This document shows, in pieces, positions 2,767 to 47,080 of a DNA stretch of 52,070 bases. Position 1 is the stretch's first letter, and every line of letters starts with the position of its first letter. Position numbers and translations under genes: made by a program. The notes under the pieces are model-generated. The model did no database searches. It worked only from the letters and a program-made list of their open reading frames with translations, and was not told where the DNA came from. The DNA comes from a virus, in IMG/VR virus record IMGVR_UViG_3300036852_000324, positions 1 to 52,070 of that record; one strand, written 5' to 3'.

Positions 2767-2993
2767 AGCGTCCCCCGGTCGGATCCGAGGAGTGGAAGCG
2801 TATCCACCGCCAGGTGATGGCGGAGCTGCGTGAATTCAGAAAGCTCGCAGGTGGATGCCGGCAATGCTCCCGTCCGGCCAAGATCGGAAGGGACGGAAAG
2901 CCGATGTCGGCTTGCCAATTTCATCTCGACGAGGACAAGGCCAGGGTCGCTCGCGCGGCATCGAAGGCCAGAAAGGCAAAGATCCGTGGATAG
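2763..2993 (+). CDS. putative zinc-binding basic protein
   Basis: A 76-residue protein with a CRQC...CQFH arrangement (residues about 33-55) that could form a small zinc finger, followed by a Lys/Arg/Ala-rich helix suited to nucleic-acid contact. Shares ATGA with the preceding frame and overlaps the next gene by 8 bases. Confidence 0.6.
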   Translation: MKRPPVGSEEWKRIHRQVMAELREFRKLAGGCRQCSRPAKIGRDGKPMSACQFHLDEDKARVARAASKARKAKIRG

Positions 2994-3147
2994 CTCGCTG
3001 GTTTCCGACGATGTCATCGAGGCGGCCGTTCGCGTCGTAATCGCCTGCTGGTACGCGGTAGCGGTGTCCGTGACCTACCGGGCGATGTGGGCGGATCAGA
3101 CCAGGGTCATTCCCCTCGCTATCGTCGTTCGGAGGTGGTTTCGATGA
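2986..3147 (+). CDS. 53-residue protein with hydrophobic segment
   Basis: GTG start at 2986 inside the end of the previous gene. Encodes VDSSLVSDDVIEAAVRVVIA and onward, with a moderately hydrophobic central region that could be membrane-associated. Ends in ATGA overlap with the next gene. Function unknown. Confidence 0.45.
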   Translation: MDSSLVSDDVIEAAVRVVIACWYAVAVSVTYRAMWADQTRVIPLAIVVRRWFR

Positions 3148-3569
3148 GCAACGATTGCCAGAAGTGCGGACCGAATCCGCAGGAGTGTCCTGTTGTGCTG
3201 TGCTCCCCATGCGCGCTCAGTGAATCATCAACCATCAGCATCAGTGAGCTGGAGGCGCTGCACGCGGCGATGAGCGCTGGTGAGTTCCGCTATGTCGAGC
3301 AGACCGGACGAGTCGAGGCGACGAATACGACATCTGCCCTTCGGCTGCCAAAGGACATCTGCGAGATGGACATCTGCGAGATGTTCGTCGGAAACGCCTT
3401 CAACAACGCCCACGGCATCGTCGCCGAGCATAACGCCATGCCGGTACTGTTGGAGGTCGTGAAGGCGGCACTGGCGTGGCAGGAGTCGCGTCAGGATGCC
3501 GAGACTGATTATGAGGTTTCAGTGGCCGATGGAGAACTCGCCGACGCGCTCGCCAAGGTCCGGCCATGA
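3144..3569 (+). CDS. Cys-rich N-terminus protein with DICEM repeat
   Basis: A 141-residue protein. The N-terminus carries CQKC...CPVVLCSPC, a likely zinc-binding site. The centre contains the pentapeptide DICEM twice in tandem, from a 15-base perfect direct repeat at about 3354-3383, a sign of recent slippage. The C-terminal half is helical. Several phages have similar small proteins of unknown function. ATGA overlaps on both sides. Confidence 0.6.
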   Translation: MSNDCQKCGPNPQECPVVLCSPCALSESSTISISELEALHAAMSAGEFRYVEQTGRVEATNTTSALRLPKDICEMDICEMFVGNAFNNAHGIVAEHNAMPVLLEVVKAALAWQESRQDAETDYEVSVADGELADALAKVRP

Positions 3570-21920: not shown

Positions 21921-22496
21921 ATGGGCAGCTCCACCGACAACACGACGAAGGAATGGCGAGACGAGACCTCGCCCGAGCGGCGCGGAATGATGGGCTCGGT
22001 CCGGTACATGGCGGTCAAGTTGACCGAGGGGGCGACCTGGCAGGTGCTCGGCCATCTCCTGCCAGACGCCAAAACCCCGGAGGCCCGCCAGGCCCAGCAC
22101 TTCTCCGGGATCGGATTCTTCGCGCGTCCCGCCGCCGGCGCCAACGCGGAGGCCGTGGTGGTTTTTCCAGGCGGCGCCTCGAACCCGATCATCGTGGCGA
22201 CTCGCGACGAGGACGCGCGCAAGGCCATCGCCGAGCTGCCGCAGAACTCCACCGCGATGTTCAACCGCCTGACGATCGTCATCATCAAGCCGGACGGAAC
22301 CGTAGAGATCCGAGCATCCGGCGGCACGGCCTCTCCGCTCGCCACCAAGGCGGACATCGATGCCCTGAAGGCGTGGGCAGCCAGCCATACGCACGTCGTC
22401 GCTGGTATCACGGCGGGCGGCGCCGCGGTCACCTCGGCGACCCCGCTGCCGGTCGCCCCGGTCGCCGCGGGGACCACCGTCCTGAAGGCCCAGTAG
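21921..22496 (+). CDS. baseplate spike protein (Mu gp45/gpV-like)
   Basis: A 191-residue protein with an N-terminal OB-fold-like region around QAQHFSGIGFFARPAAGANA (Mu gp45 'e..qpyGf.s.P..G') and a beta-helix-like C-terminal part (LTIVIIKPDGTVEIRASG). The end contains SHTHVVAG, His residues that could hold an iron ion at the spike tip as in gp45. Pierces the outer membrane. Confidence 0.85.
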   Translation: MGSSTDNTTKEWRDETSPERRGMMGSVRYMAVKLTEGATWQVLGHLLPDAKTPEARQAQHFSGIGFFARPAAGANAEAVVVFPGGASNPIIVATRDEDARKAIAELPQNSTAMFNRLTIVIIKPDGTVEIRASGGTASPLATKADIDALKAWAASHTHVVAGITAGGAAVTSATPLPVAPVAAGTTVLKAQ

Positions 22497-22965: not shown

Positions 22966-24510
22966 ATGCCATTCCAGATCCCATCAATGGACGAAGCCCG
23001 CGAGTTCATCGTGGCGCTCGGCAAGGCCCTGTTTCCGACGAGGAACTTCGGGTCTCGCCGGTCGTACCACGGTCGACGCGTCACGATTATCGCGGGTGCC
23101 ACCACGCAGCTCCACTCGCACGTGGACGGCGTTGCTCGAGATTCCCATCCGCTGACCGCTGGTCCAGGAAAGCCCATCCTGAACTGGGGCGAGGCCGCTG
23201 GAGTGGTCATCAAGACGGCAACGCCGGCGCGTAAGGCCGCCGCCGCGCGGGTTCGTGGCGCGGCGACCGCGACCGCCTCGATCGGGGACCTCCTCCGTCA
23301 TGAGTCCTCCGGGTTGCTCTACGAGCTGGCCAGCGCGGTGACCATCCCCGGTATCATCTCGGACCCGGACTCCTTCGTGGATGCCGACATCGTGGCGTCG
23401 GAGGCCAACGGATCTGTCGGGTCCCAGACCCGGCTCGACGTGGGTGAGACCCTGAACTTCGTCACCACGCCGGTCGGCATCCAGACCGCGGTGGTCCTTC
23501 AGCTCGCCCTGGACGAGGACGGGTTCGACGCCGAGCAGTTCGGCAGCTACCGGGCCCGCGTGCTCGCCACGTTCTCACAGTCCCCCTCGGGCGGGAACCA
23601 GAGCGACTTCGTGAAGTGGGCGCTCGCGAGCCTGAACACGGTCGCCGCTGCCTTCGCGTACCCGAATCGCGCTGGCCGCGGGACGATCGATGTCGTCGGG
23701 TTCTACAACGGAACCGGTACCGCGCGGTCTCTAACCCCCGACGACCGGGATACCGTCCAGGCGTATATCGAGACCCAGGCCCCGTTCAACATATCGGGAG
23801 ATGGCGGTGGCCTTCGGATCCTCACGACCGTGGCCGATCCGAGAAACGTCGAGATTCTCCTCGAGCCCAACGGTCAGGCCGCGTTCGCCTTCGACTGGGA
23901 CGACACCGTCGCCATGGTCGTGTTGAGCTGGACCGCCGCGACCCGCGCGCTTCGGTTCACCACGCCGCTTCCGGCTTCGATGCGCGCTGGCCATCGCCTG
24001 GTCCTGGTCGCCGTCGCCAGCGCACAGGACGGCACCGAGTACCGGATCGAATCGATCTCCTCGTCGGACACCGTGATCCTCGAGAAGACCCCGCCGATCG
24101 CCCCGGTCGCAACTGATCTGGTGTACAGCGGCGGACCGCTGGTGACCCCGGTCAGGGCTGCGATCGTGGCCCACATGAACGGCGAGATCGTCTACGCCGG
24201 GCGCGGCCTCACGCCGGTCCCGGCCAGCGTGGCGGCATCGAGCGGCCTATCGATCGTTGGCCTGGACATCCTGGCCGATGGCATCGGTCCGGCGAACCCC
24301 GGCGGCATCTACAACTCGACCAACGGCCCGCAGTGGAGCGGCGCCATCATCCGAGCCCAGCTATTCGGCATCGCGAAGTACAAGGCCGGCGTGCGGAACG
24401 TGACGATCGTGACGCCGGCTGCCGACTACGAGGCCGTGGACGACGCCTTCCCGAACGACTCACAGATCCACTACATCACGCCAGGCGCGGTCGTGGTGAG
24501 GAGCGCGTAG
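22966..24510 (+). CDS. baseplate J-like protein (Mu gp47-like)
   Basis: A 514-residue wedge protein longer than the usual roughly 360-residue gp47. N-terminal and central parts contain baseplate-J elements (ASAVTIPGIISDPDSFVDAD...GNQSDFVKWALASLNTVAAA...VDVVGFYNGTG); the second half includes an inserted beta domain (residues about 300-400) before the C-terminal arm. It builds the wedge ring that triggers sheath contraction. Confidence 0.85.
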   Translation: MPFQIPSMDEAREFIVALGKALFPTRNFGSRRSYHGRRVTIIAGATTQLHSHVDGVARDSHPLTAGPGKPILNWGEAAGVVIKTATPARKAAAARVRGAATATASIGDLLRHESSGLLYELASAVTIPGIISDPDSFVDADIVASEANGSVGSQTRLDVGETLNFVTTPVGIQTAVVLQLALDEDGFDAEQFGSYRARVLATFSQSPSGGNQSDFVKWALASLNTVAAAFAYPNRAGRGTIDVVGFYNGTGTARSLTPDDRDTVQAYIETQAPFNISGDGGGLRILTTVADPRNVEILLEPNGQAAFAFDWDDTVAMVVLSWTAATRALRFTTPLPASMRAGHRLVLVAVASAQDGTEYRIESISSSDTVILEKTPPIAPVATDLVYSGGPLVTPVRAAIVAHMNGEIVYAGRGLTPVPASVAASSGLSIVGLDILADGIGPANPGGIYNSTNGPQWSGAIIRAQLFGIAKYKAGVRNVTIVTPAADYEAVDDAFPNDSQIHYITPGAVVVRSA

Positions 24511-24513
24511 TCG

Positions 24514-26325
24514 ATGCAGAATCTGACCAGCAGACGCAAGCTCGTGATGAGCGGGACCAAGATCCTGGTCGTCGTAGGGCAGTCGAACGGGAACGGGTTT
24601 GCGTTCACCGCGAACCAGATCGCGGTTCCCAATATCAGCTTCCCATATGCGGCCGTGAAGGAGATCGACCACGGCGCCACCATCAACGGCGATCCGCTCG
24701 TGTGGACGTTCGATCGTCCGGTCACGCTCGGAAACACCCTGCCGTCTCCGGTGGGCGTGGTTCCCGTTTCGCTGTCTCCTCGCACCGGAGACGCGAACGG
24801 GGATTCGGGTGTCGAGCTGTCGCTTATGCGCCGGCTAGATCGGGCATGGCCGGGACGCTGGGCGCTCGCGAAAATGTGCATCCCATCGTCTTCGATGCTC
24901 AACTGGATCGCGCCGCCAGACACGAGCGCGTACCCGACCGCGACGCCGCACCTATGGGATCAGTGGCTCGCGTTCCTGACGTTCTGCGAGGTCGTGTTCA
25001 ACGGAAAGATTTGGGCAGTCAATGACCACCAGGGCGAGAGCGATGCCCAGACCGCGCCGCTCTCCTCGACATGGGAGGCGCGCAAGATCAACTTCATCGT
25101 TGGTACGCGCAACTTCCTAGCGCGAACTACTCCGTGGTTCCTGCCGAGACTGCACTCGACCTCTCCGGGCTCGTTCAACGCGACCATCCGTACGGCGACG
25201 GCGAACATCGCGAATAACACGACCGGTAATACGCCGCGCTGTAAGATGATCGACATCGATTCGGTTGGGGTCACGACGCTGCACTACACCGACGACCAGT
25301 ATGCGGTCGCGGGCGTGGTCGAGTCGCGGGATGTGATCTCGTTCCTCGATCTGACCGAGCCGCCGGCGTCGTTGTTCTCTTGGTCCTGGTCGGGGACGAC
25401 CGTCACGTTCACCGATGCGTCGGTGGCCGGCGTTGGTCGCACGATAGTCTCGAGACTATACGACTTCGGGGACGCCTCTACGAGCACATCGACGAACCCC
25501 GTGCACGTCTACAGCGTACTGGGGACCTACACGGTCACGCTCAAGACCACCGATGACCGCGGCTCGATCGATATCTGCACCCGCCTGGTGACCTGTGCCG
25601 CCGGCAACTGGACCGTCGATGCAAAGAGCGGCAGGGCGGTTCCTGCAACGTCCGGCGAGGTCGCTGCGCTTTTTGCTGCAGCCGGACTCGGGTTCTCTCC
25701 GACCTCGGCCTATCTACCTGGCACCCCTACAGCCACTCCGATAGCGGATATCGTCGGGGCGTTTCCGCTCACAGTCGCCGGAGCGACGGTCGAGTTTCAG
25801 TCGACGGTTCCGAACTGGAACACGAAGGCGCTTCGCACGATCAACAACGTGACGGACGGCGCGTCTACGACCGATGCAGCACTTCCAGATGTCCTGACGA
25901 CTTCATGCCTCGCGATCGTTCAGGCGGCGATCTGGACGACACCAACGTCTACCCGCGGCGTGGTCGCGATGGGAACCACGGAGACGCAGCTGAGTTTCAA
26001 CAACGCCAACCCGCCGCGTATGCTCGTCAGGTCGAACACGCAAAGCACGACCGGTACCGCGGACGTCAATAACGACGTGCATCTGTTGATGCTGCGCCAC
26101 AACCGAACGGCTTCGACGTGCAAGATGATCACAGACCTCGAGCCCCCGGTTACCTGCACGTTCGCCACGAGCGTGACCGGTAAGCGGTTCAGGATCGGTC
26201 TCACAAGCTCGGCATCGCCTGGCGCGCAATTTGTTCACGTCATGAGAATCGACGGCGCGAACTCCGAGCTGTCGGACGCGCAGTGCAAGACCCTCGGCAA
26301 TGTCATGGGCTACGTGATGCCATGA
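24514..26325 (+). CDS. GQSN acetylesterase-PKD-LamG tail protein
   Basis: A 603-residue multidomain protein. Residues about 10-265: a SASA/DUF303-type SGNH esterase with VVVGQSNGNG (Ser in GQSN nucleophile block) and DHQGESDAQ (GESD block). Residues about 285-365: a PKD domain (YDFGDASTSTSTNPVHVYS...GTYTVTL). The C-terminal roughly 220 residues are concanavalin-like. It would deacetylate host surface polysaccharide as a receptor-processing spike. An alternative start is ATG at 24547. Confidence 0.8.
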   Translation: MQNLTSRRKLVMSGTKILVVVGQSNGNGFAFTANQIAVPNISFPYAAVKEIDHGATINGDPLVWTFDRPVTLGNTLPSPVGVVPVSLSPRTGDANGDSGVELSLMRRLDRAWPGRWALAKMCIPSSSMLNWIAPPDTSAYPTATPHLWDQWLAFLTFCEVVFNGKIWAVNDHQGESDAQTAPLSSTWEARKINFIVGTRNFLARTTPWFLPRLHSTSPGSFNATIRTATANIANNTTGNTPRCKMIDIDSVGVTTLHYTDDQYAVAGVVESRDVISFLDLTEPPASLFSWSWSGTTVTFTDASVAGVGRTIVSRLYDFGDASTSTSTNPVHVYSVLGTYTVTLKTTDDRGSIDICTRLVTCAAGNWTVDAKSGRAVPATSGEVAALFAAAGLGFSPTSAYLPGTPTATPIADIVGAFPLTVAGATVEFQSTVPNWNTKALRTINNVTDGASTTDAALPDVLTTSCLAIVQAAIWTTPTSTRGVVAMGTTETQLSFNNANPPRMLVRSNTQSTTGTADVNNDVHLLMLRHNRTASTCKMITDLEPPVTCTFATSVTGKRFRIGLTSSASPGAQFVHVMRIDGANSELSDAQCKTLGNVMGYVMP

Positions 26326-36866: not shown

Positions 36867-38161
36867 CGCGTCACCGCCCGCCATCGCCCCGCAGCACGCT
36901 CGACGAGGCCAGCCTGTTCCAGCTCTGCGAGGTTCTGTAGGAGCCCGGCACCACGCGAGATGCCGCGGAGGTCCCGCATCGCATACTGCGCCAGGCCGGT
37001 GGCGCCGGCGCGCGTGATGAGCTTGAGCAGCTCGGCCCGGCGCTTCGCGTCCTCGGTACCCGCGCGACCGGCGGACAGCTCGGCACGGATCTCGACCTTG
37101 CCGCGCGCCGGGGCCGTGCGGTTCTTGTCCTTCTTCTCGGCCTCCTCGGCGGCCTTGACCTCGCCGGGGGTCGGAGGGAGGTGGCCGGTCTCCGACCACA
37201 CGCCACCCGGCTTGCTGTACTCCGTCCCGACCTGGCCCTCTGCGCCGGTCCAGCGCGCCTTCGCAATGAGGTCTCGTCCCTGTAGCACCATGGCATCGTC
37301 CTCCTTGTACAGCTGCGAAACTATTACGTTGCTGCACACCTGCTGCATGATACTGCTCTCCGCGGCGGCGCCGATCGCGTCGGCCGCGCTCTCGATCTCG
37401 ACCTTCCCGGTCAGGAGCTGCTGCCCCGACTTCGTACCCTGCGCCAGCAGGAGGCCCCAGCACTTTGTCTCGAGGGCGATCTTCTCGAACCTCTTGCCGT
37501 AGCGCAGCATCTCACCGCGGATGTTGTCGCTCTCGCAGATCAGCTGACCGATGTGGTCGACGACGAAAAGCGGCGGCAGCCGGTAGATGCGCCAGGTCAC
37601 CTCGATGCAGTCCCGGATGGCGGCGATCTGCACCTCCGGGTCGTCGTACCTGTCGACGAAGTGCCACATGTCCGTGACGGCGGAGATCTGGTGCCGGATG
37701 CGGCCCTCGTCCCATTCGTCCAGAACATGCATCGCGTGCTCCCCGTTCATGTTGCCGAGGATTCTCGCGATCAGCTGCTCCTTGCCCAGCTCCAGCGGGG
37801 CCCAGATGACAGGCAGCCCCGCCCCGGATACCGCACGGGCGAGCTGAATTCCGCGTTGCGTCTTGCCGCCGCCGATCGATCCGACGAACGCGTTGCACTC
37901 TCCCACGTAGGTCCGGCAGCGCCGCGCCAGCTCGGGCCACTCCGCCGGCCACGGCATCTTGGGCATACCGCGCATCTTGACGAGCGCGTCCACGACATCC
38001 GCCGGCGAGACAAACTGGTGCTTGGTCTGCGCCTTGCGATTCGAGGCCTCGACCTCGCGCGCCCACGCCTCGGACAGCTTCGCGTTGGGCCGCATCGACG
38101 GGAACGGGATCACGTTGTCGGGCGCCGGGTCCGCTCCGAACAGGCCGTCATCATCGGGCAT
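36863..38161 (-). CDS. replicative DnaB-like/RecA-fold helicase
   Basis: A 432-residue ATPase. Walker A VGSIGGGKT (residues about 93-101), Walker B FVVDHIG (Asp202), then LLLAQGTKSGQQ sensor region and a C-terminal winged-helix-like segment (RAGATGLAQYAMRDLRGISR). Immediately downstream of the primase in the same operon, it is the likely replisome motor. N-terminal primase-binding domain is short compared with DnaB (about 450-470 residues). Confidence 0.8.
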   Translation of the reverse strand: MPDDDGLFGADPAPDNVIPFPSMRPNAKLSEAWAREVEASNRKAQTKHQFVSPADVVDALVKMRGMPKMPWPAEWPELARRCRTYVGECNAFVGSIGGGKTQRGIQLARAVSGAGLPVIWAPLELGKEQLIARILGNMNGEHAMHVLDEWDEGRIRHQISAVTDMWHFVDRYDDPEVQIAAIRDCIEVTWRIYRLPPLFVVDHIGQLICESDNIRGEMLRYGKRFEKIALETKCWGLLLAQGTKSGQQLLTGKVEIESAADAIGAAAESSIMQQVCSNVIVSQLYKEDDAMVLQGRDLIAKARWTGAEGQVGTEYSKPGGVWSETGHLPPTPGEVKAAEEAEKKDKNRTAPARGKVEIRAELSAGRAGTEDAKRRAELLKLITRAGATGLAQYAMRDLRGISRGAGLLQNLAELEQAGLVERAAGRWRAVTR

Positions 38162-38652
38162 CACCGGGATGGCCCCAGGACGCACATCAGCGCTTTCCGC
38201 GCTGCGACCTGGATTCCCGGCTCCCTGCTCTCCCTCGGTCCAGCCACGTTCAGGCAGTAGATCCGATTGACGTTGAGCCAATCGGATGCCACCTGCCACG
38301 TGTACGGAGACACGTACTCGCCAGCCTTGGCGACCATGATGTGCAGTATCGGCATGCCAATCTTTCGCGCCGTGATCGCGGTCAGCATGGAACCGCTGTC
38401 ACGGGACAGCTCACCGAACGAGATTATCAGCGTGCCGTCGGACTTCATGATGTTCTGGACCGTCCTCACCTTGTAGGTGGGAGACTTCGTCTCTCGCATA
38501 CCAACGCGATAGACCTCGGGGATGATGCCGTCCTCGGCGCGCCATCCGTGAGGGGCCCATCCACCGCGCTCGATATGGAGGTCACCGGCGGCGTCCAGTC
38601 CACCGCGGTCGGCCCCGGTCTGGCCGCCGGATATGATCTTCTGGACGATCAT
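38161..38652 (-). CDS. SLOG-fold protein (putative molybdenum-carrier family)
   Basis: A 163-residue protein starting MIVQKIISGGQTGADRGGLD. GGQTGAD is the nucleotide-binding loop of the SLOG/'putative molybdenum carrier' family; AEDGIIPEVYRV, SPTYKVRTVQN and GTLIISFGEL also fit. SLOG proteins bind nucleotide-derived ligands. Between primase and helicase, overlapping both, it could regulate nucleotide use or intercept host nucleotide signals; the role is inferred. Confidence 0.75.
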   Translation of the reverse strand: MIVQKIISGGQTGADRGGLDAAGDLHIERGGWAPHGWRAEDGIIPEVYRVGMRETKSPTYKVRTVQNIMKSDGTLIISFGELSRDSGSMLTAITARKIGMPILHIMVAKAGEYVSPYTWQVASDWLNVNRIYCLNVAGPRESREPGIQVAARKALMCVLGPSR

Positions 38653-39857
38653 GGAAGCTCTACCCACCATTTCGCCATCGCTCGCGTGATGTCGGCGCCG
38701 CGCCGGCGGAATAGGTCGTTCAGGTCCTTGAGTTTGACTTCGCCGTCCTTGCAGAACAACCATCCGACCCGCTTTGGACCGAGTATGCGCACCGCCACCT
38801 TGGTGGCCGCGTTGACGTCCTCGTTGACGCTGCGGTCCGCGGCAGCGCCGGCGCCGTCGTTCTGCTCGACGATCAGGAGCTTGCCACCGGGGTAGTCAGC
38901 GAGCCCCCGCGCGGCGTGGGCCGCCACCAGGTTCAGGGTACCGGCGTCGACTGCACCGAGAACCTGGGCATCCGGCCACACACAGAGTCCGGTCAGGTAG
39001 TCCATTGCACCTTCACAGACGACCACCATACGACTGGGTCCGGGGTCAATGCAATGCGGGTTTCCGTAGCACCCCACCAGCTGGCGCGGCCTGCCGCCCT
39101 CCGCGGGCCCGGCAGTGACTCCGCCAAGCATTCCAATGATCTTTGGCTGGCCATCTCTGGGCTCGAATCTACGGACTCGGACGTCGACCAGTTCCCCGTC
39201 CAGGATATGGCGCACGGGCAGGGCAACTCCCGGGGTCGCGAACATGAAGGACAGCGTCTTGAGGTCCGCGCTCTTGCAGCTCTCCTGCGGGGTGATGCGC
39301 ATGGGGGTCTCACGCAGCTCCTCGAGCTTGCGTAGGACGACAGGGTCGAGTCCGCGCTCCAGGGCCAGGTAGGAATCGGCCACCGACTTGCGTCCTGGCT
39401 GCCCCCATTCGGTAGTACGTGCCATGTCGTCCCACTTGAACAGCCTGCTCCACACCCATGCGGCGCGCTTCTTCGCGAGCGCCACGCGCTGGGCGAGCGG
39501 AGGGACCGGAGGCAACGGATCGCGCGCCTTGGCCGGTGGCTTCGGGCTGGCGCCAAAGCTCTCCTCGTCGTCTACGCCGGCGATGGCGGCGGCGATCTCC
39601 AGGATGCGCGGGAAGTCCGCGCGCATGTCGAGCTTCTCGCCGACCGCGACGAGTCGCAGAAGGTCGCCGCCCTTGTCGCAGGCCCAGCAATGCCAGTGCC
39701 CGTCTCGAGCTATTCCGAACGCCTCGGTGTCGTGGTCGCCCAGTGCACAGCGAGACGAGCGCAGCCAGCGCCCGCGCCACTGCCCCGGGATCGCGAAATG
39801 CTGGGTAACATCCTCGGCCCTGAGAGCAGCCAGGACCGTCGCGCGGTCGAGGGTCAT
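38649..39857 (-). CDS. CHC2/TOPRIM DNA primase
   Basis: A 402-residue primase. Zinc-binding CHC2-like site with C37, H42, C57 and C60 (region SRCALGDHDTEAFGIARDGH then CWACDKGGD). TOPRIM domain: MVVVCEGAMDYLTGL (Glu282) and EQNDGAG (about 331-337). Shorter than DnaG because the helicase-binding region is reduced. TAATG overlap with the ParB-like gene. It would lay RNA primers for phage DNA. Confidence 0.85.
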   Translation of the reverse strand: MTLDRATVLAALRAEDVTQHFAIPGQWRGRWLRSSRCALGDHDTEAFGIARDGHWHCWACDKGGDLLRLVAVGEKLDMRADFPRILEIAAAIAGVDDEESFGASPKPPAKARDPLPPVPPLAQRVALAKKRAAWVWSRLFKWDDMARTTEWGQPGRKSVADSYLALERGLDPVVLRKLEELRETPMRITPQESCKSADLKTLSFMFATPGVALPVRHILDGELVDVRVRRFEPRDGQPKIIGMLGGVTAGPAEGGRPRQLVGCYGNPHCIDPGPSRMVVVCEGAMDYLTGLCVWPDAQVLGAVDAGTLNLVAAHAARGLADYPGGKLLIVEQNDGAGAAADRSVNEDVNAATKVAVRILGPKRVGWLFCKDGEVKLKDLNDLFRRRGADITRAMAKWWVELP

Positions 39858-40759
39858 TACGACCCGAACTCCGGCTCATTCTCCGTGCTGGCGGCCATCT
39901 CCGACATCGTTCCGTCGTGCACGACCGAGGTCGATAGCGCCACCATCCTGATCTTGAGGAGCGCGGATCGAGCCTCCACAAATGTCGGGCTCACCCCGGT
40001 GTCGTTCAGGATCTTCTCGATCGCCCTGATGCGCTGCGCTGGAGTCTGCACCGGCGCCTTTCCGTTGCCCTCGCGGATCTTGTTGGTGACCGCCCGAGCC
40101 GTGGGCTTCGCACCGTCCGCCGTGATGAGGGCGATCTTGGCGACCTGCTCCGACCGGGGAAGCTTCGCGAGCTTCGCCGCCGCGCCGACGGCCATTCCCT
40201 TCTCGACCAGGCGCTGCACCTTGGGGTCCAGCGACAGCAACGAAAGCCACTCGCGCATCGTGGGTAGCGTGACCCCGAAGGCGATGGCGGCCTCCTCCTC
40301 GCTGCGACCCATGTCGATCAGGCGCTGCGCGTTGCGTGCCTGCGCCATCGGCGAATCGTCCGGGCGGTGCGTGTTGGCGGCGCGCGAGACGCCGTACAAC
40401 ATGGCTCCGTCGCCGCGCTTCGGGATTCCGGGAACGACCAGAACCTCCTCGCCGGCGGCCTTTTGTAGCCTTGCGGCGCAGCGAGCCCATCGGACGCGCG
40501 TGCGACCATCGACGACTAGTATCCGATCGCCGTCGCGCTCGAACAGAATCGGCTTGAGCACGCCGAACGTGCGGACGTTGGCGATGTTGGCCGTGTCCTT
40601 CTCGGCCGGGTGCTCGTTGCTCTCCGGGTCGAACAGCGGATGGGACCGGTCTGCCGTGGTGTCGATGCCGACGATGATGACCTCGAACGGGTCGAACACG
40701 AAATAGCTTCGCCGCGTGCCCTCGGCCTGGGACCCAGACTTCTTCTTTGCCTTGCTCAT
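39857..40759 (-). CDS. ParB/Srx-domain protein
   Basis: A 300-residue protein. Residues about 55-115 (VRTFGVLKPILFERDGDRIL...DGRTR) match the ParB/Srx nuclease-like domain; about 145-200 (EEEAAIAFGVTLPTMREWLS) form a DNA-binding HTH. No ParA ATPase is present, so classical partition is unlikely. Phage ParB-type proteins often act as CTPase/nicking or gene-regulating factors; iteron-like repeats at the right end are a possible target. Confidence 0.8.
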   Translation of the reverse strand: MSKAKKKSGSQAEGTRRSYFVFDPFEVIIVGIDTTADRSHPLFDPESNEHPAEKDTANIANVRTFGVLKPILFERDGDRILVVDGRTRVRWARCAARLQKAAGEEVLVVPGIPKRGDGAMLYGVSRAANTHRPDDSPMAQARNAQRLIDMGRSEEEAAIAFGVTLPTMREWLSLLSLDPKVQRLVEKGMAVGAAAKLAKLPRSEQVAKIALITADGAKPTARAVTNKIREGNGKAPVQTPAQRIRAIEKILNDTGVSPTFVEARSALLKIRMVALSTSVVHDGTMSEMAASTENEPEFGS

Positions 40760-41064
40760 GCTCCGAGCCTTTCCAATACGGCGGTCACCGCCGCGATTCT
40801 GAATTCTTCGTTGTCCAGATCTTCAGGATTCCACTGGATGTCATGGAAGTTGCCATCCCGATCGATGACCCCCTCATCCATGTCCTGGCCCGCGAGTCTG
40901 GCGCCGATCAGTTCAGCGCGGAGCGCCAGCCTATCCCATCGAGCGCGCCACTCATCTCGCTTCGATGCGAGCAGGAGATTTTCTGCGACCTTTGACTCTG
41001 CGATTTTCATCCTGGCCGCGTGTCCAGCTTGGTACTCGCAGATCTTCCCCTCGTCGGCCATCAT
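40756..41064 (-). CDS. coiled-coil protein, function unknown
   Basis: A 102-residue helical protein (MMADEGKICEYQAGHAARMK and on), acidic C-terminus. ATGA overlaps both neighbours in the replication operon. No motif recognised. Confidence 0.58.
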   Translation of the reverse strand: MMADEGKICEYQAGHAARMKIAESKVAENLLLASKRDEWRARWDRLALRAELIGARLAGQDMDEGVIDRDGNFHDIQWNPEDLDNEEFRIAAVTAVLERLGA

Positions 41065-41330
41065 CGCCTCACGATCAGTTGGCTGGTTCTGGTCTCCAGG
41101 AGTAGAACGATCAGGCGGTCTAGGGTGCCGCCTGGGAGCGATTCGACCAGGGCATCGCGTATCGCGCGCGCCTCGAAGTCGAAATCGATACGATCGACGA
41201 TCTTCGGTGGATCGTCCGGTGGATTGATTCCCACCAGTAGCGGGTTATCAAGTCCCACCTGTATTGTAGTAGTTGGGATATTCTGGTGACCGATTGGTTC
41301 CGCCTTGTGCACCCTGACGATGGCAATCAC
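41061..41330 (-). CDS. 89-residue protein, function unknown
   Basis: GTG start overlapping the previous TGA. Beta-rich N-terminal half with NPPDDPPKIVDRIDF, then helix. Possibly nucleic-acid associated given its operon. No family recognised. Confidence 0.55.
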   Translation of the reverse strand: MIAIVRVHKAEPIGHQNIPTTTIQVGLDNPLLVGINPPDDPPKIVDRIDFDFEARAIRDALVESLPGGTLDRLIVLLLETRTSQLIVRR

Positions 41331-41782: not shown

Positions 41783-43234
41783 GTGACCACACCGAACGAG
41801 TCCAACCCCTCAACGTCGCTCGCGCTTTCCGAGCGAAACCAAAAACTGCAACACGTGCGCGATGAGATGGCGCCCGGCGCGCGTCCTGGCGCGATCGTGC
41901 CGCGCTCCTTCGCGGAGCTGGAGCTGATGTGCAAAGCGCTGGCTGCCGCTGACCTTGCGCCCAAGCACCTGCGCGGAAAACCGACGGACATGGCGCTCGT
42001 CATCATGACCGGCGCCGAGGTCGGACTTCCCCCGATGGCCTCCCTGCGGCTTTATACGACCTGGGACGGCGTCCCCCGGCTGATGGCCGAGGGCATGCGA
42101 GCCATCATCCTGGCCCACCCTGAATGCGAGTGGTTCCGTCGGGTGCGCGGGGACGAGACGCAGAGCGTGTGGTCGACGAAGCGCCGCGGGCAGCCGGAGC
42201 AGACCGTTACGTGGACGATCGAGCGGGCCAAGCGCGCGGGCCTCCTCGGCAAGGAGAACTGGATGAAGTACCCCGAGGACATGCTTTCCGCGCGCGCGTC
42301 CATGCAGCTCGCTCGGCTCGAGTGGCCGGATGTCGTGGCCGGCATGGTGTCGCGCGAGGAGGCGTTCGACGGAGACTTCATCGACGTCACGGAGTCCCGG
42401 TCGAACGGGCAAGCATTCACGGCACCGATCGCCATGGCCCCGTCGGTCGACAGCATGGAACTTCGCGCTGCAGTGGCGCAGCTTCCGAAGGACGCGGGCC
42501 GGATTGTCGCGGAGCCGGCGCCGGTTCAGGTCCATGCCCTCGGGGTCGCTGGTCCGGTGGGAACCACGGCGCCGACGCCCCAGGAGGGCGTACCCGTCCA
42601 GAAGGGCAAGCGCGCCGCGACCCCTACTCCGCCGGCGACCTCGAGCGCACCCTCCGGTTCGCCGGCTCCCTCGTCGTCTCCTGCCTCAAGCGCCTCGGCG
42701 TCGACCCCGGCAGCTGCCGCATTGTCCGCGGCGACGGCGACACCTACGACATCGTCGCCGAGTAAGCTCGAATCGGCCATCGCGACGGTCGAGGCGAAGG
42801 ACCGATTCGGGCAGACGATCGCGGTGGACCCTACGCCGCCCGGTTCGAGCACGGGGCCTACGCCGTCGACCGGATCGGCATCACCATCGACCGGGAATCC
42901 TCCCTCTGGTGCCGCCCCGGGCCCCGCATCTGCGCCGACTGCCCCAACAACCTCTCTTGCTGTCGAAGACGAGGGCGGATTCGCCGATGACCCGGAGGAC
43001 TCGGCACCGCCGGTGGATGCCCAGGTTCCGCTCGGGAAGCTCCTCGTCGATTTCCACAAATGGCTGGCGGAATGCAAGACCCAGCGAGATCTCCAGGCCG
43101 GCTTCCCGAAGTGGAAGCTGTGGACCAAGGAGCGGGTCCAGCAGCACAACGACGACCGCTTCACCAAGGAGGGCGCCGGTACGGAGATGATGCAGGTTGC
43201 TTATGCGACCAGAAAGAGCCAGGTTCCGGCATGA
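41783..43234 (+). CDS. RecT-family single-strand annealing protein
   Basis: A 483-residue GTG-start protein. RecT core in residues about 1-200: MTGAEVGLPPMASLRLYTTW, then ENWMKYPEDMLSARASMQLA. A Pro/Ser/Thr/Ala-rich disordered stretch of about 150 residues follows, then a C-terminal helical domain (VDFHKWLAECKTQRDLQAGF). It would anneal resected ends made by the exonuclease four genes downstream. GGAG lies about 10 bases before the start. Confidence 0.85.
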   Translation: MTTPNESNPSTSLALSERNQKLQHVRDEMAPGARPGAIVPRSFAELELMCKALAAADLAPKHLRGKPTDMALVIMTGAEVGLPPMASLRLYTTWDGVPRLMAEGMRAIILAHPECEWFRRVRGDETQSVWSTKRRGQPEQTVTWTIERAKRAGLLGKENWMKYPEDMLSARASMQLARLEWPDVVAGMVSREEAFDGDFIDVTESRSNGQAFTAPIAMAPSVDSMELRAAVAQLPKDAGRIVAEPAPVQVHALGVAGPVGTTAPTPQEGVPVQKGKRAATPTPPATSSAPSGSPAPSSSPASSASASTPAAAALSAATATPTTSSPSKLESAIATVEAKDRFGQTIAVDPTPPGSSTGPTPSTGSASPSTGNPPSGAAPGPASAPTAPTTSLAVEDEGGFADDPEDSAPPVDAQVPLGKLLVDFHKWLAECKTQRDLQAGFPKWKLWTKERVQQHNDDRFTKEGAGTEMMQVAYATRKSQVPA

Positions 43235-43425
43235 CGCTTGGAGAGAAGATGGTATGGGCTGTTGCGTTTGTGAGCGGCTGCCGGGACAGCTATCTGCATC
43301 CCGGCGACGCATGTGATCTCGCGGATTCCCTCGTCGCAAAACTCCGGTTTGGAGGACGCGGGGATGGCTGGTCTGAGATGGTCGAGACCGCGGATGCGGC
43401 CTCAGATCGAGGGGATAAGTCATGA
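43231..43425 (+). CDS. 64-residue protein, function unknown
   Basis: MTLGEKMVWAVAFVSGCRDS, then a short helix and a charged tail. Fits between neighbours by ATGA overlaps. The N-terminal pattern is common in small phage proteins of unknown function. Confidence 0.55.
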   Translation: MTLGEKMVWAVAFVSGCRDSYLHPGDACDLADSLVAKLRFGGRGDGWSEMVETADAASDRGDKS

Positions 43426-43907
43426 CCCGTGCCGTCCTATACATGGCGCATGCGCTCCGCCCGTCAGAGGACGAGATCAAGGCGCAGGAGTCCATACTCG
43501 CGCCAGATCGCACCCCCGACCGGGCCATCGAGATGGCGTACGAGGCCAATATCCGACGATCGATGAGATGGCTCACCTGGCTCCGCCGGAGCTTTCCGGA
43601 GACCACGTTCATAGCTCCGTGGATCGCAGCGGTTCAGTCCGGCGAGGATGACTCCGACACAGCACAGCGCGAGTCTGGCCTCGTGGACGCGTGCGCCGTC
43701 ATCGAGCGCTGCGACGGGATCGTGCTGTGCGGAGGTCGGATCTCGATGGGGATGCGGAGAGAGATGGAGCACGGCACGAAACGAGACGAGGAAGATCGTG
43801 TACCGTTCGAGGTCTACGACCTGACACGGTGGTCGATGATCGATCCCGGTCCTCCGCTGCGTCCGGCGATAGACTTCGCTCAGTGGTATAGCGAGTTCGG
43901 GTCATGA
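43422..43907 (+). CDS. SLOG/deoxyribosyltransferase-like protein
   Basis: A 161-residue protein. N-terminal strand AVLYMAHALRPSED and later DGIVLCGGRISMGMRREMEH resemble the nucleoside 2-deoxyribosyltransferase/SLOG (DUF4406-type) fold, where the Gly loop binds nucleotides. It sits inside the recombination operon. It is a second SLOG-like gene in this genome. Possible nucleotide salvage or signal-binding role. Confidence 0.62.
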   Translation: MTRAVLYMAHALRPSEDEIKAQESILAPDRTPDRAIEMAYEANIRRSMRWLTWLRRSFPETTFIAPWIAAVQSGEDDSDTAQRESGLVDACAVIERCDGIVLCGGRISMGMRREMEHGTKRDEEDRVPFEVYDLTRWSMIDPGPPLRPAIDFAQWYSEFGS

Positions 43908-43984
43908 GGGTGAAGATCTTCGGATACCTCGACGCCTGGCAGAGCGTGCGGAACCGCATGCGGCATCGGTGGAGCTGGGCGTGA
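43904..43984 (+). CDS. 26-residue basic microprotein
   Basis: MRVKIFGYLDAWQSVRNRMR then HRWSWA. ATGA overlap at its start and GTGA overlap with the exonuclease at its end. Aromatic and basic, perhaps nucleic-acid binding or just a coupling peptide that delivers ribosomes to the next GTG. Confidence 0.42.
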   Translation: MRVKIFGYLDAWQSVRNRMRHRWSWA

Positions 43985-45252
43985 GGATCACGGGATCTAA
44001 GGTCCACCGCGTATGGAAGTGCCAGGCCTCCGCCGTGCTGCCTCAGCTCGAGACCGATGATAGCCGGTTCGAGCCCGCAAGAAACAAGGGCAAGGCGATC
44101 CACGCGTTCCTGGAGACGGTAAAAACGCTGGGGAGATCCGGGGCGCTCGCCGCTGCCCCCGAGGATCTCCTGCCGCTGCTGGAGGCGCTGGATCTGGAAG
44201 ACCTCCCGGTCGGCCTGGCTTGCGAGGTCGCCTTCGCCTGGAACTGGCGAGACCACACCGCGCGCGAGCTGGGGCGAAGCCCGAATCTTCCGAGGCGAGT
44301 CGACGGCGGGGTCGACTACGACGCCATGGGCGTGAACTGGGGGTGCGAGATCCCGGGGACATACGACGTGGTGGGGGTACAGGGCGAGTTCGGCGAGGCC
44401 CAGACACGCGGATACCTCGGAGACTACAAGAGCGGGCATTCGAAGCATCCCGCGCCTGACATGTTCGGCCAGACCCTACTCGGCGCGCTGTGCGTACGCG
44501 CCGTGTACGGCTGCGACGCTGTGGTGGTCGAACTGATCCATATCCACGACAACGGCGGCCACTACAAGGCACGCCGGACCGTCAACGAGTGGGACCTCGA
44601 CATCTTCGCGCGCGAGATCGAGAACGCCATGTCCCCGTACGCTACTCCGACTCCGCGCGAGGGACCGCACTGCGACTACTGCCCGGCTTTCAAGGCGTGC
44701 CCCGCGAAGATCGGACTCGTTCGGAGCATCCCGGAGAAGCTTCTCGAGCTGGGTATCCGACCGGGGTCCGTCGTGGACGAGGCCGGCGTCGAGCAGAATG
44801 CTCTGGTCTTGACGCCGGGCATGCTGACGATCCGCAATGCCGCAGCGGCCTGGATGACGCTCGAGCTGATCGCGGACGTCGTGAACCGGGCCAAGGACGA
44901 GGTCATCGGAATCGCGGCCATGGAGGAGATCCCGTTGCCCGACGGACGAGTCATCGGTCGCCTGGTGACCGAGAAGCGGTCGGTCGACGGCAGGATCGCG
45001 GCCGAGGTCCTCGAGTCACGCTACGGACGGGAGACCAGGGACGAGTTCGTAGAGCCGCACGTGACCATGACCTCGTTGAGACAGGCGGCGGTCAAGAACA
45101 AGGCTGCTTCGGAGAAGATCGCGACCAAGAACAAGACGGGAGCCTTCGACAAGCTACTGCTCGCGATCGAGCAGAAGGGGGGCGTCCAGGTCAACGTGAC
45201 CGACGCGATCAGGCCCCACGTCCCGAAGAAAAAGCGGCTGACGGGCGGCTAG
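43981..45252 (+). CDS. PD-(D/E)XK exonuclease (RecB/Cas4-like)
   Basis: A 423-residue GTG-start nuclease. GYLGDYKSGH is the D...(E/D)xK active-site motif; the early RNKGKAIHAFLETV helix (H-x3 motif) and CDYCPAFKACP match RecB-family nucleases with a C-terminal Fe-S-like cysteine cluster. Paired with RecT it would resect double-strand ends for annealing recombination and concatemer formation. Its stop shares CTAG with the convergent RiPP-like gene. Confidence 0.82.
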   Translation: MRITGSKVHRVWKCQASAVLPQLETDDSRFEPARNKGKAIHAFLETVKTLGRSGALAAAPEDLLPLLEALDLEDLPVGLACEVAFAWNWRDHTARELGRSPNLPRRVDGGVDYDAMGVNWGCEIPGTYDVVGVQGEFGEAQTRGYLGDYKSGHSKHPAPDMFGQTLLGALCVRAVYGCDAVVVELIHIHDNGGHYKARRTVNEWDLDIFAREIENAMSPYATPTPREGPHCDYCPAFKACPAKIGLVRSIPEKLLELGIRPGSVVDEAGVEQNALVLTPGMLTIRNAAAAWMTLELIADVVNRAKDEVIGIAAMEEIPLPDGRVIGRLVTEKRSVDGRIAAEVLESRYGRETRDEFVEPHVTMTSLRQAAVKNKAASEKIATKNKTGAFDKLLLAIEQKGGVQVNVTDAIRPHVPKKKRLTGG

Positions 45253-45446
45253 CCGTCGATCCCGCAGCTCGATGCGCAGCTGCGCTGGATGCTGGTGTTG
45301 GATGGGCACCAGTAGACGATCGATTCGATCTCGGTATTGGTGACGACGTCCCCGTCGCCTCCGACCACTACTCTGAGCTGCGCCGCCGACAGGTCACGAA
45401 TCGTATCGCTCGTCAGGGCCAGCCTTGCCACCTTGGTCTTTTTCAT
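45249..45446 (-). CDS. RiPP (class I lanthipeptide-like) precursor peptide
   Basis: A 65-residue peptide. Residues about 6-30 (VARLALTSDTIRDLSAAQLR then VVVGG) match the leader type 'L.L...TIR.Ls..eL..v.GG' found on class I lanthipeptide and related precursors, ending in double Gly. The putative core has Cys at 47, 57 and 61 amid many Ser/Thr (WCPSNTSIQRSCASSCGIDG). No LanB, LanC, protease or transporter is present here, so host enzymes would be needed. Upstream gene ends 22 bases before. Ribosome site is weak. Confidence 0.72.
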   Translation of the reverse strand: MKKTKVARLALTSDTIRDLSAAQLRVVVGGDGDVVTNTEIESIVYWCPSNTSIQRSCASSCGIDG

Positions 45447-45468: not shown

Positions 45469-45783
45469 CTACAGCATTGGTCGACAGCGCCATGCGGCAA
45501 TCTGATCCCGATAGGGAACGTCGAGACTCCTTAGCCAGATCGCGGACTTACCGACCGCCATAGGCGCGGGGCCGACCACCCAGTGCTCGCCGCGGGCCAG
45601 TCCATCTGCAATCTGGTCGACCGGGGCTCCGTTGTGCCACCCGATCAGTACAGGCCAGCGCTCGTAAATCGGTAGCGCCGGCGTTCGTAGCGTGTGGTCG
45701 TAGATCCGTGTATTGACCCGTGGGGCCTGAACTGGATCATCTTCGTAGTCGTATAGGACTGGCAGCCTGGACGTCCTAGCCAT
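45469..45783 (-). CDS. 104-residue protein next to RiPP-like gene
   Basis: MARTSRLPVLYDYEDDPVQA, then a beta/helix mix with HWVVGPAPMAVGKSAIWLRS. Start follows AAAGGA inside the previous gene. Immediately upstream of and probably co-transcribed with the RiPP-like precursor. Not recognised as a RiPP enzyme. Confidence 0.55.
   Translation of the reverse strand: MARTSRLPVLYDYEDDPVQAPRVNTRIYDHTLRTPALPIYERWPVLIGWHNGAPVDQIADGLARGEHWVVGPAPMAVGKSAIWLRSLDVPYRDQIAAWRCRPML

Positions 45784-46499: not shown

Positions 46500-46503
<4 letters not shown>
46372..46503 (-). CDS. 43-residue protein, function unknown
   Basis: [20 protein letters not shown] then [21 protein letters not shown] partly hydrophobic helix followed by a basic helix. 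ATGA overlap upstream and GTGA downstream. Confidence 0.5.

Positions 46504-47080
<577 letters not shown>

What the first reader, a model, noticed from the sequence alone, without database searches (positions are those of the whole stretch)
45249..45446. Orphan lanthipeptide-like (RiPP) precursor in a phage
The peptide has the leader form 'L.L..DTIR.LSaaQL..VVGG' of class I lanthipeptide-type precursors and a Cys/Ser/Thr-rich core, yet no maturation genes exist in the window. A phage-borne precursor that borrows host LanB/LanC enzymes would be a new kind of phage cargo, perhaps giving lysogens or infected cells a competitive product or decoy.
Basis: partly seen in the sequence, partly recalled or inferred. 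Interest (0 to 1): 0.9.

Follow-up and report, generated by a model that had tools for sequence, protein, structure and literature searches.

The report
Phage-borne orphan lanthipeptide-type precursor peptide
A soil phage carries a tiny gene whose first half matches the 'address tag' bacteria use to mark peptides for conversion into ring-shaped lanthipeptides, yet carries no conversion enzymes; eight other phage contigs, most of them unrelated, do the same, which suggests that phages supply the raw peptide and borrow the host's enzymes.

Summary
Window 45446..45249 (minus) encodes a 65-aa peptide with a Cys-free leader (LxLxSx5L...GG) and a Cys/Ser/Thr-rich core. NCBIfam lant_leader_L1a (class I lanthipeptide) matches over its full length (E 0.0032, 17.6 bits), below its cut-off of 22. 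A leader profile built here from bacterial precursors only recovers it (E 0.0015 among 8,821 phage ORFs; best reversed-sequence hit 0.69). The record holds no LanB or LanC. It is not a one-off: a related myophage (portal 82%) has its own leader peptide beside the same neighbour gene, and seven further IMG/VR contigs, six with hallmark phage genes, carry lone L1a-like precursors, up to three each, without LanB/LanC. A reversed-motif control scan gave no equivalent. Some Acidobacteriota-type genomes hold 16-26 such precursors, mostly far from their two or three LanB genes, so modification in trans is plausible there. Most likely this is a phage-supplied substrate for host LanB/LanC, giving a thioether peptide product. 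The phage's host, any modification and the biological role are not shown. New variant of a known kind.

The parts
45249..45446 (-). 65-aa RiPP (class I lanthipeptide-type) precursor gene, ATG at 45446-45444, stop at 45251-45249
45357..45446 (-). leader, residues 1-30: LxLxSx5L motif, DTIRDLS, ending GG; no Cys
   Evidence: NF038153 profile 1-32/32 on residues 1-30; host-only leader HMM E 0.0015
45252..45356 (-). core, residues 31-65: 3 Cys, 9 Ser/Thr in 35 aa; Ser/Thr lie N-terminal to the Cys
   Evidence: composition test; sequence
45469..45783 (-). same-strand upstream neighbour, 104 aa, unknown function; its homologue (51% identity) also directly neighbours the leader peptide gene of related phage G001
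43981..45252 (+). convergent neighbour: phage exonuclease (phrog_69); homologues in G001 (63%) and G002 (58%)
41783..43234 (+). RecT-like ssDNA annealing protein (context: recombination module)

Best explanation
The gene encodes a complete RiPP precursor (leader plus core) of the class I lanthipeptide L1a type, carried by a contractile-tailed soil phage without maturation genes. During infection the peptide is translated; a host LanB dehydratase is recruited by the LxLxSx5L...DTIRDLS leader and dehydrates core Ser/Thr; host LanC joins them to core Cys; a host GG-peptidase removes the leader. The phage thereby obtains a cyclised peptide product that acts in or from the infected cell. Shown: gene, leader type, core composition, absence of phage enzymes, recurrence in other phages, and existence of bacteria with LanB/LanC plus many dispersed precursors of this type. 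Inferred: that this phage's host is such a bacterium, that LanB/LanC rather than another enzyme acts, the cleavage, and that the product benefits the phage.
For: Full-length L1a leader match and match to a bacterial-only leader profile with a clean reversed control. Related phage G001 has its own leader peptide beside the same neighbour gene, with a very different core. Lone L1a-like precursors occur in IMG/VR contigs G013, G159, G160, G161, G162 (two), G163 (three) and G164; all but G013 have TerL, portal or tail hits, the portal of G163 being weak (E 8e-4). A forward-motif scan gave 19 hits, 8 precursor-like and all 8 with core Cys; a reversed-motif scan gave 11 hits, none with a Cys-containing precursor shape. 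Phage cores are 12% Cys against about 1.1% in phage proteins; bacterial cores are 15.7%. Genomes G005, G006 and G007 hold 25, 16 and 26 precursors but two or three LanB places each, and nearly all precursors lie on other contigs. In two clusters full-length LanB (both Pfam domains) lies beside LanC, once with a precursor adjacent. No LanC profile hit in the nine peptide-bearing virus records, no LanB profile hit in G000, G001, G002, G004, G013, and no convincing tblastn hit of two bacterial LanB and two LanC proteins in any of the nine contigs, with positive controls found.
Against: The peptide scores below NCBIfam's curated cut-off (17.6 against 22), as do all other phage peptides tested. The host is unknown; tetranucleotide comparison is inconclusive. 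The dispersed-precursor pattern is rare: 10 of 147 genomes of the class have any L1a leader at E 0.001, and the genomes studied were found through the leader motif, so they are not a random sample. They also carry long LanC-domain ORFs that may be LanM or class III enzymes, so the acting enzyme is unproven. No strong Shine-Dalgarno sequence. Two related phages, G002 and G004, lack the peptide, so it is accessory.
Confidence: 0.58

Rival explanations
1. Leader decoy or anti-defence: the peptide is expressed to occupy the leader-binding site of host LanB, so that the host cannot mature its own, possibly anti-phage, lanthipeptides. Modification of the phage core is incidental.
For: Anti-phage lanthipeptides acting inside the producing cell have been reported in Streptomyces (reviewed in PMC12360287), so phages could have a motive. 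The leader is conserved while cores differ strongly between phages.
Against: A decoy needs only the leader, yet phage cores are about ten-fold enriched in Cys and keep Ser/Thr. The anti-phage lanthipeptides known come from Actinomycetota, not from the bacteria in which this leader type was found here.
Confidence: 0.15
2. Passenger: a bacterial precursor gene picked up by phages through recombination, with no benefit to them.
For: Accessory: absent from G002 and G004. In G001 it lies in a different slot and orientation beside the same gene. Possible source genomes hold dozens of copies.
Against: Repeated in nine contigs from several phage types, two or three copies in G162 and G163, with intact frames and leader shape. 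G013 and G160 keep the leader (5 silent, 2 replacement codon changes) while the core varies (1 silent, 5 replacement); the numbers are too small to be decisive.
Confidence: 0.14
3. A GG-leader peptide matured by another RiPP enzyme (LanM, class III, radical SAM), or exported unmodified as a class II-type bacteriocin.
For: GG leaders occur in several RiPP classes (PMC7268733). Candidate host-type genomes also hold long LanC-domain ORFs. One phage peptide, G163 at 2907-3182, scores better on TIGR04149 (rSAM-modified) than on L1a.
Against: P0001 hits only L1a in NCBIfam up to E 10. In G007 and G005 several precursors sit beside stand-alone LanC genes, once also LanB.
Confidence: 0.1
4. Chance resemblance, or not a gene.
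For: Below the curated cut-off; no close homologue of the whole peptide in the phage records or IMG/VR.
Against: Independent profile hit with reversed control, recurrence with a motif control, related phage with its own leader peptide, coding score.
Confidence: 0.03

Closest known systems
NCBIfam NF038153 lant_leader_L1a (class I lanthipeptide; GG-type leaders)
   Same: Full-length profile match over the leader, GG at the leader end, Cys/Ser/Thr core
   Different: 17.6 bits, below the curated 22; no biosynthetic genes nearby; in a phage
Class I LanAs with LxLxKx5L leaders, many ending in GG, described from Bacteroidetes (PMC7268733)
   Same: LxLx-x-x5L spacing, GG end, Cys in core
   Different: Ser in place of Lys at the fifth motif position; cognate LanB/LanC absent from the locus
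Prochlorosins / synechococsins: one LanM, many precursors, many of them distant in the genome (PMC7268733, PMC9872173)
   Same: Lone precursors far from their enzyme, conserved leader, highly variable cores
   Different: Class II enzyme and Nif11-type leader; bacterial chromosome rather than phage
Phage- or prophage-borne complete biosynthetic clusters, such as sublancin of SPbeta (own knowledge; the paper 'Phages carry interbacterial weapons' was seen only as a citation in other papers)
   Same: Natural-product gene as phage cargo
   Different: There the phage brings the enzymes; here only the substrate

Membership tests
NCBIfam lant_leader_L1a (NF038153) | Score at or above the curated cut-off of 22 bits | tested here: not met
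   17.6-18.1 bits
NCBIfam lant_leader_L1a (NF038153) | Leader aligned over the whole profile | tested here: met
   profile 1-32/32 on residues 1-30
L1a-like precursors of Acidobacteriota-type genomes (profile built here) | Significant match to a leader HMM built without phage sequences | tested here: met
   E 0.0015 among 8,821 ORFs; reversed best 0.69
Class I LanA with LxLxKx5L...GG leader (PMC7268733) | LxLxKx5L motif and double-Gly end | tested here: inconclusive
   LALTSDTIRDL fits the spacing with Ser for Lys; GG at residues 29-30
Class I lanthipeptide | Cys in the core with Ser/Thr N-terminal to it (S/T x2-7 C) | tested here: met
   SIVYWC and SIQRSC in the core
Class I lanthipeptide | Cognate LanB and LanC in the locus | tested here: not met
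   none in the record
Class I lanthipeptide | Lanthionine rings in the mature product | not testable with these tools
   needs mass spectrometry
TIGR04149 rSAM-modified GG RiPP | Profile match | tested here: not met
   no hit up to E 10 for P0001
Prochlorosin type | Nif11-like leader and LanM (class II) | tested here: not met
   only L1a in NCBIfam, no Pfam hit for the peptide; no LanC domain, hence no LanM, in the record

The most novel reading that the evidence does not exclude
Diverse soil phages carry lone, variable lanthipeptide precursors as infection effectors whose chemistry is completed by the host's own LanB/LanC: a split pathway in which the virus supplies the substrate and the cell the catalysts, possibly to counter or redirect host lanthipeptide defence.
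Probability: 0.4. Interest if true: 0.9.

Novelty: new variant of a known kind. Interest (0 to 1): 0.77.

Why it matters
Phage natural-product cargo is known as whole clusters. A recurrent substrate-only cargo would mean that virus-encoded peptides are turned into modified natural products by host enzymes, a form of parasitism that cluster-based mining cannot see. It would also give a direct test of whether dispersed, promiscuous lanthipeptide systems in soil bacteria take part in phage-host conflict.

Tried and rejected
Close homologues of P0001: none in the phage records or IMG/VR. Host search with the TerL profile: genome-contig scan, 149 genomes of the class of G007, 379 of the phylum of a Polyangiaceae genome, 396 of the phylum of G007: nothing. 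Host by tetranucleotides: inconclusive. The whole window as a DNA query was too long for the tool. The weak L1a hit in G002 was rejected: no leader-shaped short ORF was found there. Apparent excess divergence of the peptide gene between G013 and G160 was dropped, because the upstream gene is more divergent still. phrog_19341 and other weak PHROG hits (E about 0.1 and above) ignored. A faint LanB tblastn hit in G160 (E 0.017, 29% over 148 aa) was not taken as a LanB. Literature: nine searches found no report of phage-encoded orphan lanthipeptide precursors in the held library; most subscription papers are not held, so this is not proof of absence. The marine RiPP-phage study PMC11118758 links host RiPPs to phages by co-expression and, in the passages read, does not describe phage-borne precursors.

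Full report
What is there. The ORF at 45446..45249 (minus) reads MKKTKVARLALTSDTIRDLSAAQLRVVVGG DGDVVTNTEIESIVYWCPSNTSIQRSCASSCGIDG. It lies between a 104-aa same-strand gene (45469-45783) and a convergent exonuclease (43981-45252), next to a RecT-like gene. The window is a whole IMG/VR virus record of 52,070 bases from a contractile-tailed phage: TerL, portal, major head protein, tape measure and baseplate proteins. No tRNA gene was found.

Is it more than chance? NCBIfam's lant_leader_L1a is the only NCBIfam hit up to E 10 (E 0.0032, full profile length, 17.6 bits, cut-off 22); Pfam gives none. Searching the whole record in six frames finds only this place. As a test independent of that model, I collected precursors from four Acidobacteriota-type genomes, built a leader profile from 64 of them with no phage sequence, and searched 8,821 ORFs of nine phage contigs. 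P0001 scored E 0.0015. Seven other phage peptides ranked higher (best 2e-8) and one just below (0.0025); three more were weak (0.2-0.5) and rest on the motif and geometry alone. Reversed sequences gave at best 0.69. The precursors were themselves collected with the NCBIfam model and a motif, so the two tests are related, but the phage peptides were not used in building either. The core is enriched in Cys, Ser and Thr relative to the phage's own proteins.

Relatives. The related phage G001 (TerL 74%, portal 82%, exonuclease 63%) carries MRKTTKLILDRETLRSLETVRMQEVRGG SPDASQNTDCATGSTQAPYACPSDACPTMGPCDLSFGPCV. It lies next to the homologue of the window's 104-aa gene, but on the other side of it and in the opposite orientation. 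Two further relatives, G002 and G004, have none. The peptide is therefore an accessory gene in a shared locus.

Other phages. A back-translated leader pattern scanned over IMG/VR gave 19 hits. Eight are short ORFs with the right geometry, all with Cys in the core; the other eleven are other ORFs. The same pattern reversed gave eleven hits, none with a Cys-containing precursor shape. The precursor contigs are G001, G013, G159, G160, G161, G162, G163 and G164. TerL, portal, tape measure or maturation protease genes were found on G159 to G164, although the portal of G163 is weak (E 8e-4). G013 is a near relative of G160. G162 carries two leader peptides and G163 three. In G162 one lies one gene away from the terminase gene. 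No LanC domain is found in any of these records, no LanB in those searched with the profile, and no convincing tblastn match to bacterial LanB or LanC in any of the nine contigs, while two positive-control loci were found at once.

Bacteria with the same leader. A stricter form of the pattern in bacterial genomes turned up Cys-rich precursors mainly in Acidobacteriota MAGs, plus a few in Planctomycetota and Solirubrobacteraceae. Genomes G005, G006 and G007 hold 25, 16 and 26 leaders at E 0.01 but only two or three LanB places each. Almost all precursors lie on contigs without LanB. Near LanB one finds LanC, and once a precursor. This layout, with few enzymes and many scattered conserved-leader, variable-core substrates, resembles prochlorosins but with class I enzymes. 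It is not general: only 10 of 147 genomes of the class have any L1a leader at E 0.001, and these genomes were found because they carry the motif.

How it likely works. The leader would recruit host LanB in trans; Ser/Thr in the core would be dehydrated, LanC would form thioether rings, and a peptidase would cut after GG. The strong Cys enrichment of phage cores argues that the core matters and that the peptide is not just a leader decoy, though recent capture from bacteria would also leave Cys-rich cores. A decoy role remains open because intracellular anti-phage lanthipeptides exist in Streptomyces (PMC12360287). The host of this phage could not be found, so the decisive link is missing.

Verdict. 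The identification as a class I lanthipeptide-type precursor is well supported in kind but formally sub-threshold in NCBIfam. The functional claim is plausible and untested. I found no earlier report of phage-carried orphan precursors of this type in the searchable literature.

Noticed in passing
G162 (L205-L209; leaders at contig 22128-22334 and 64970-65212) and G163 (L210-L212; 2907-3182, 23332-23532, 57850-58038): Phage contigs with two and three lone L1a-like precursor genes, with strong leader scores (to 2e-8) and up to 10 Cys in one core.
   Followed up: partly
G160 37565-41156; G163 23332-24532; G164 985-2703: In G160/G013, G163 and G164 the precursor lies near genes that look like lysis genes (amidase- or holin-like), and in G160 beside an 1135-aa kinase-like gene; judged by eye, not by profile.
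   Followed up: no
G005, G006, G007: Acidobacteriota-type MAGs with 16-26 dispersed Cys-rich class I lanthipeptide-type precursors and few LanB: a prochlorosin-like layout with class I enzymes.
   Followed up: partly
L025, L028, L050, L051, L063, L069, L072, L080, L113: Methylobacterium-type genomes carry a different GG-leader family (DTIRELNAAELDQVGGG) with Gly/Leu-rich, Cys-free tails, sometimes in tandem pairs.
   Followed up: no
window 46500-46817 (minus): ORF made of near-perfect Gly-Tyr/Gly-Asp/Gly-His repeats (short DNA repeat), open in several frames on both strands.
   Followed up: no
window 43422-43907 (plus): Weak nucleoside 2-deoxyribosyltransferase match (phrog_355, E 2.8e-4) between the RecT-like and exonuclease genes.
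   Followed up: no
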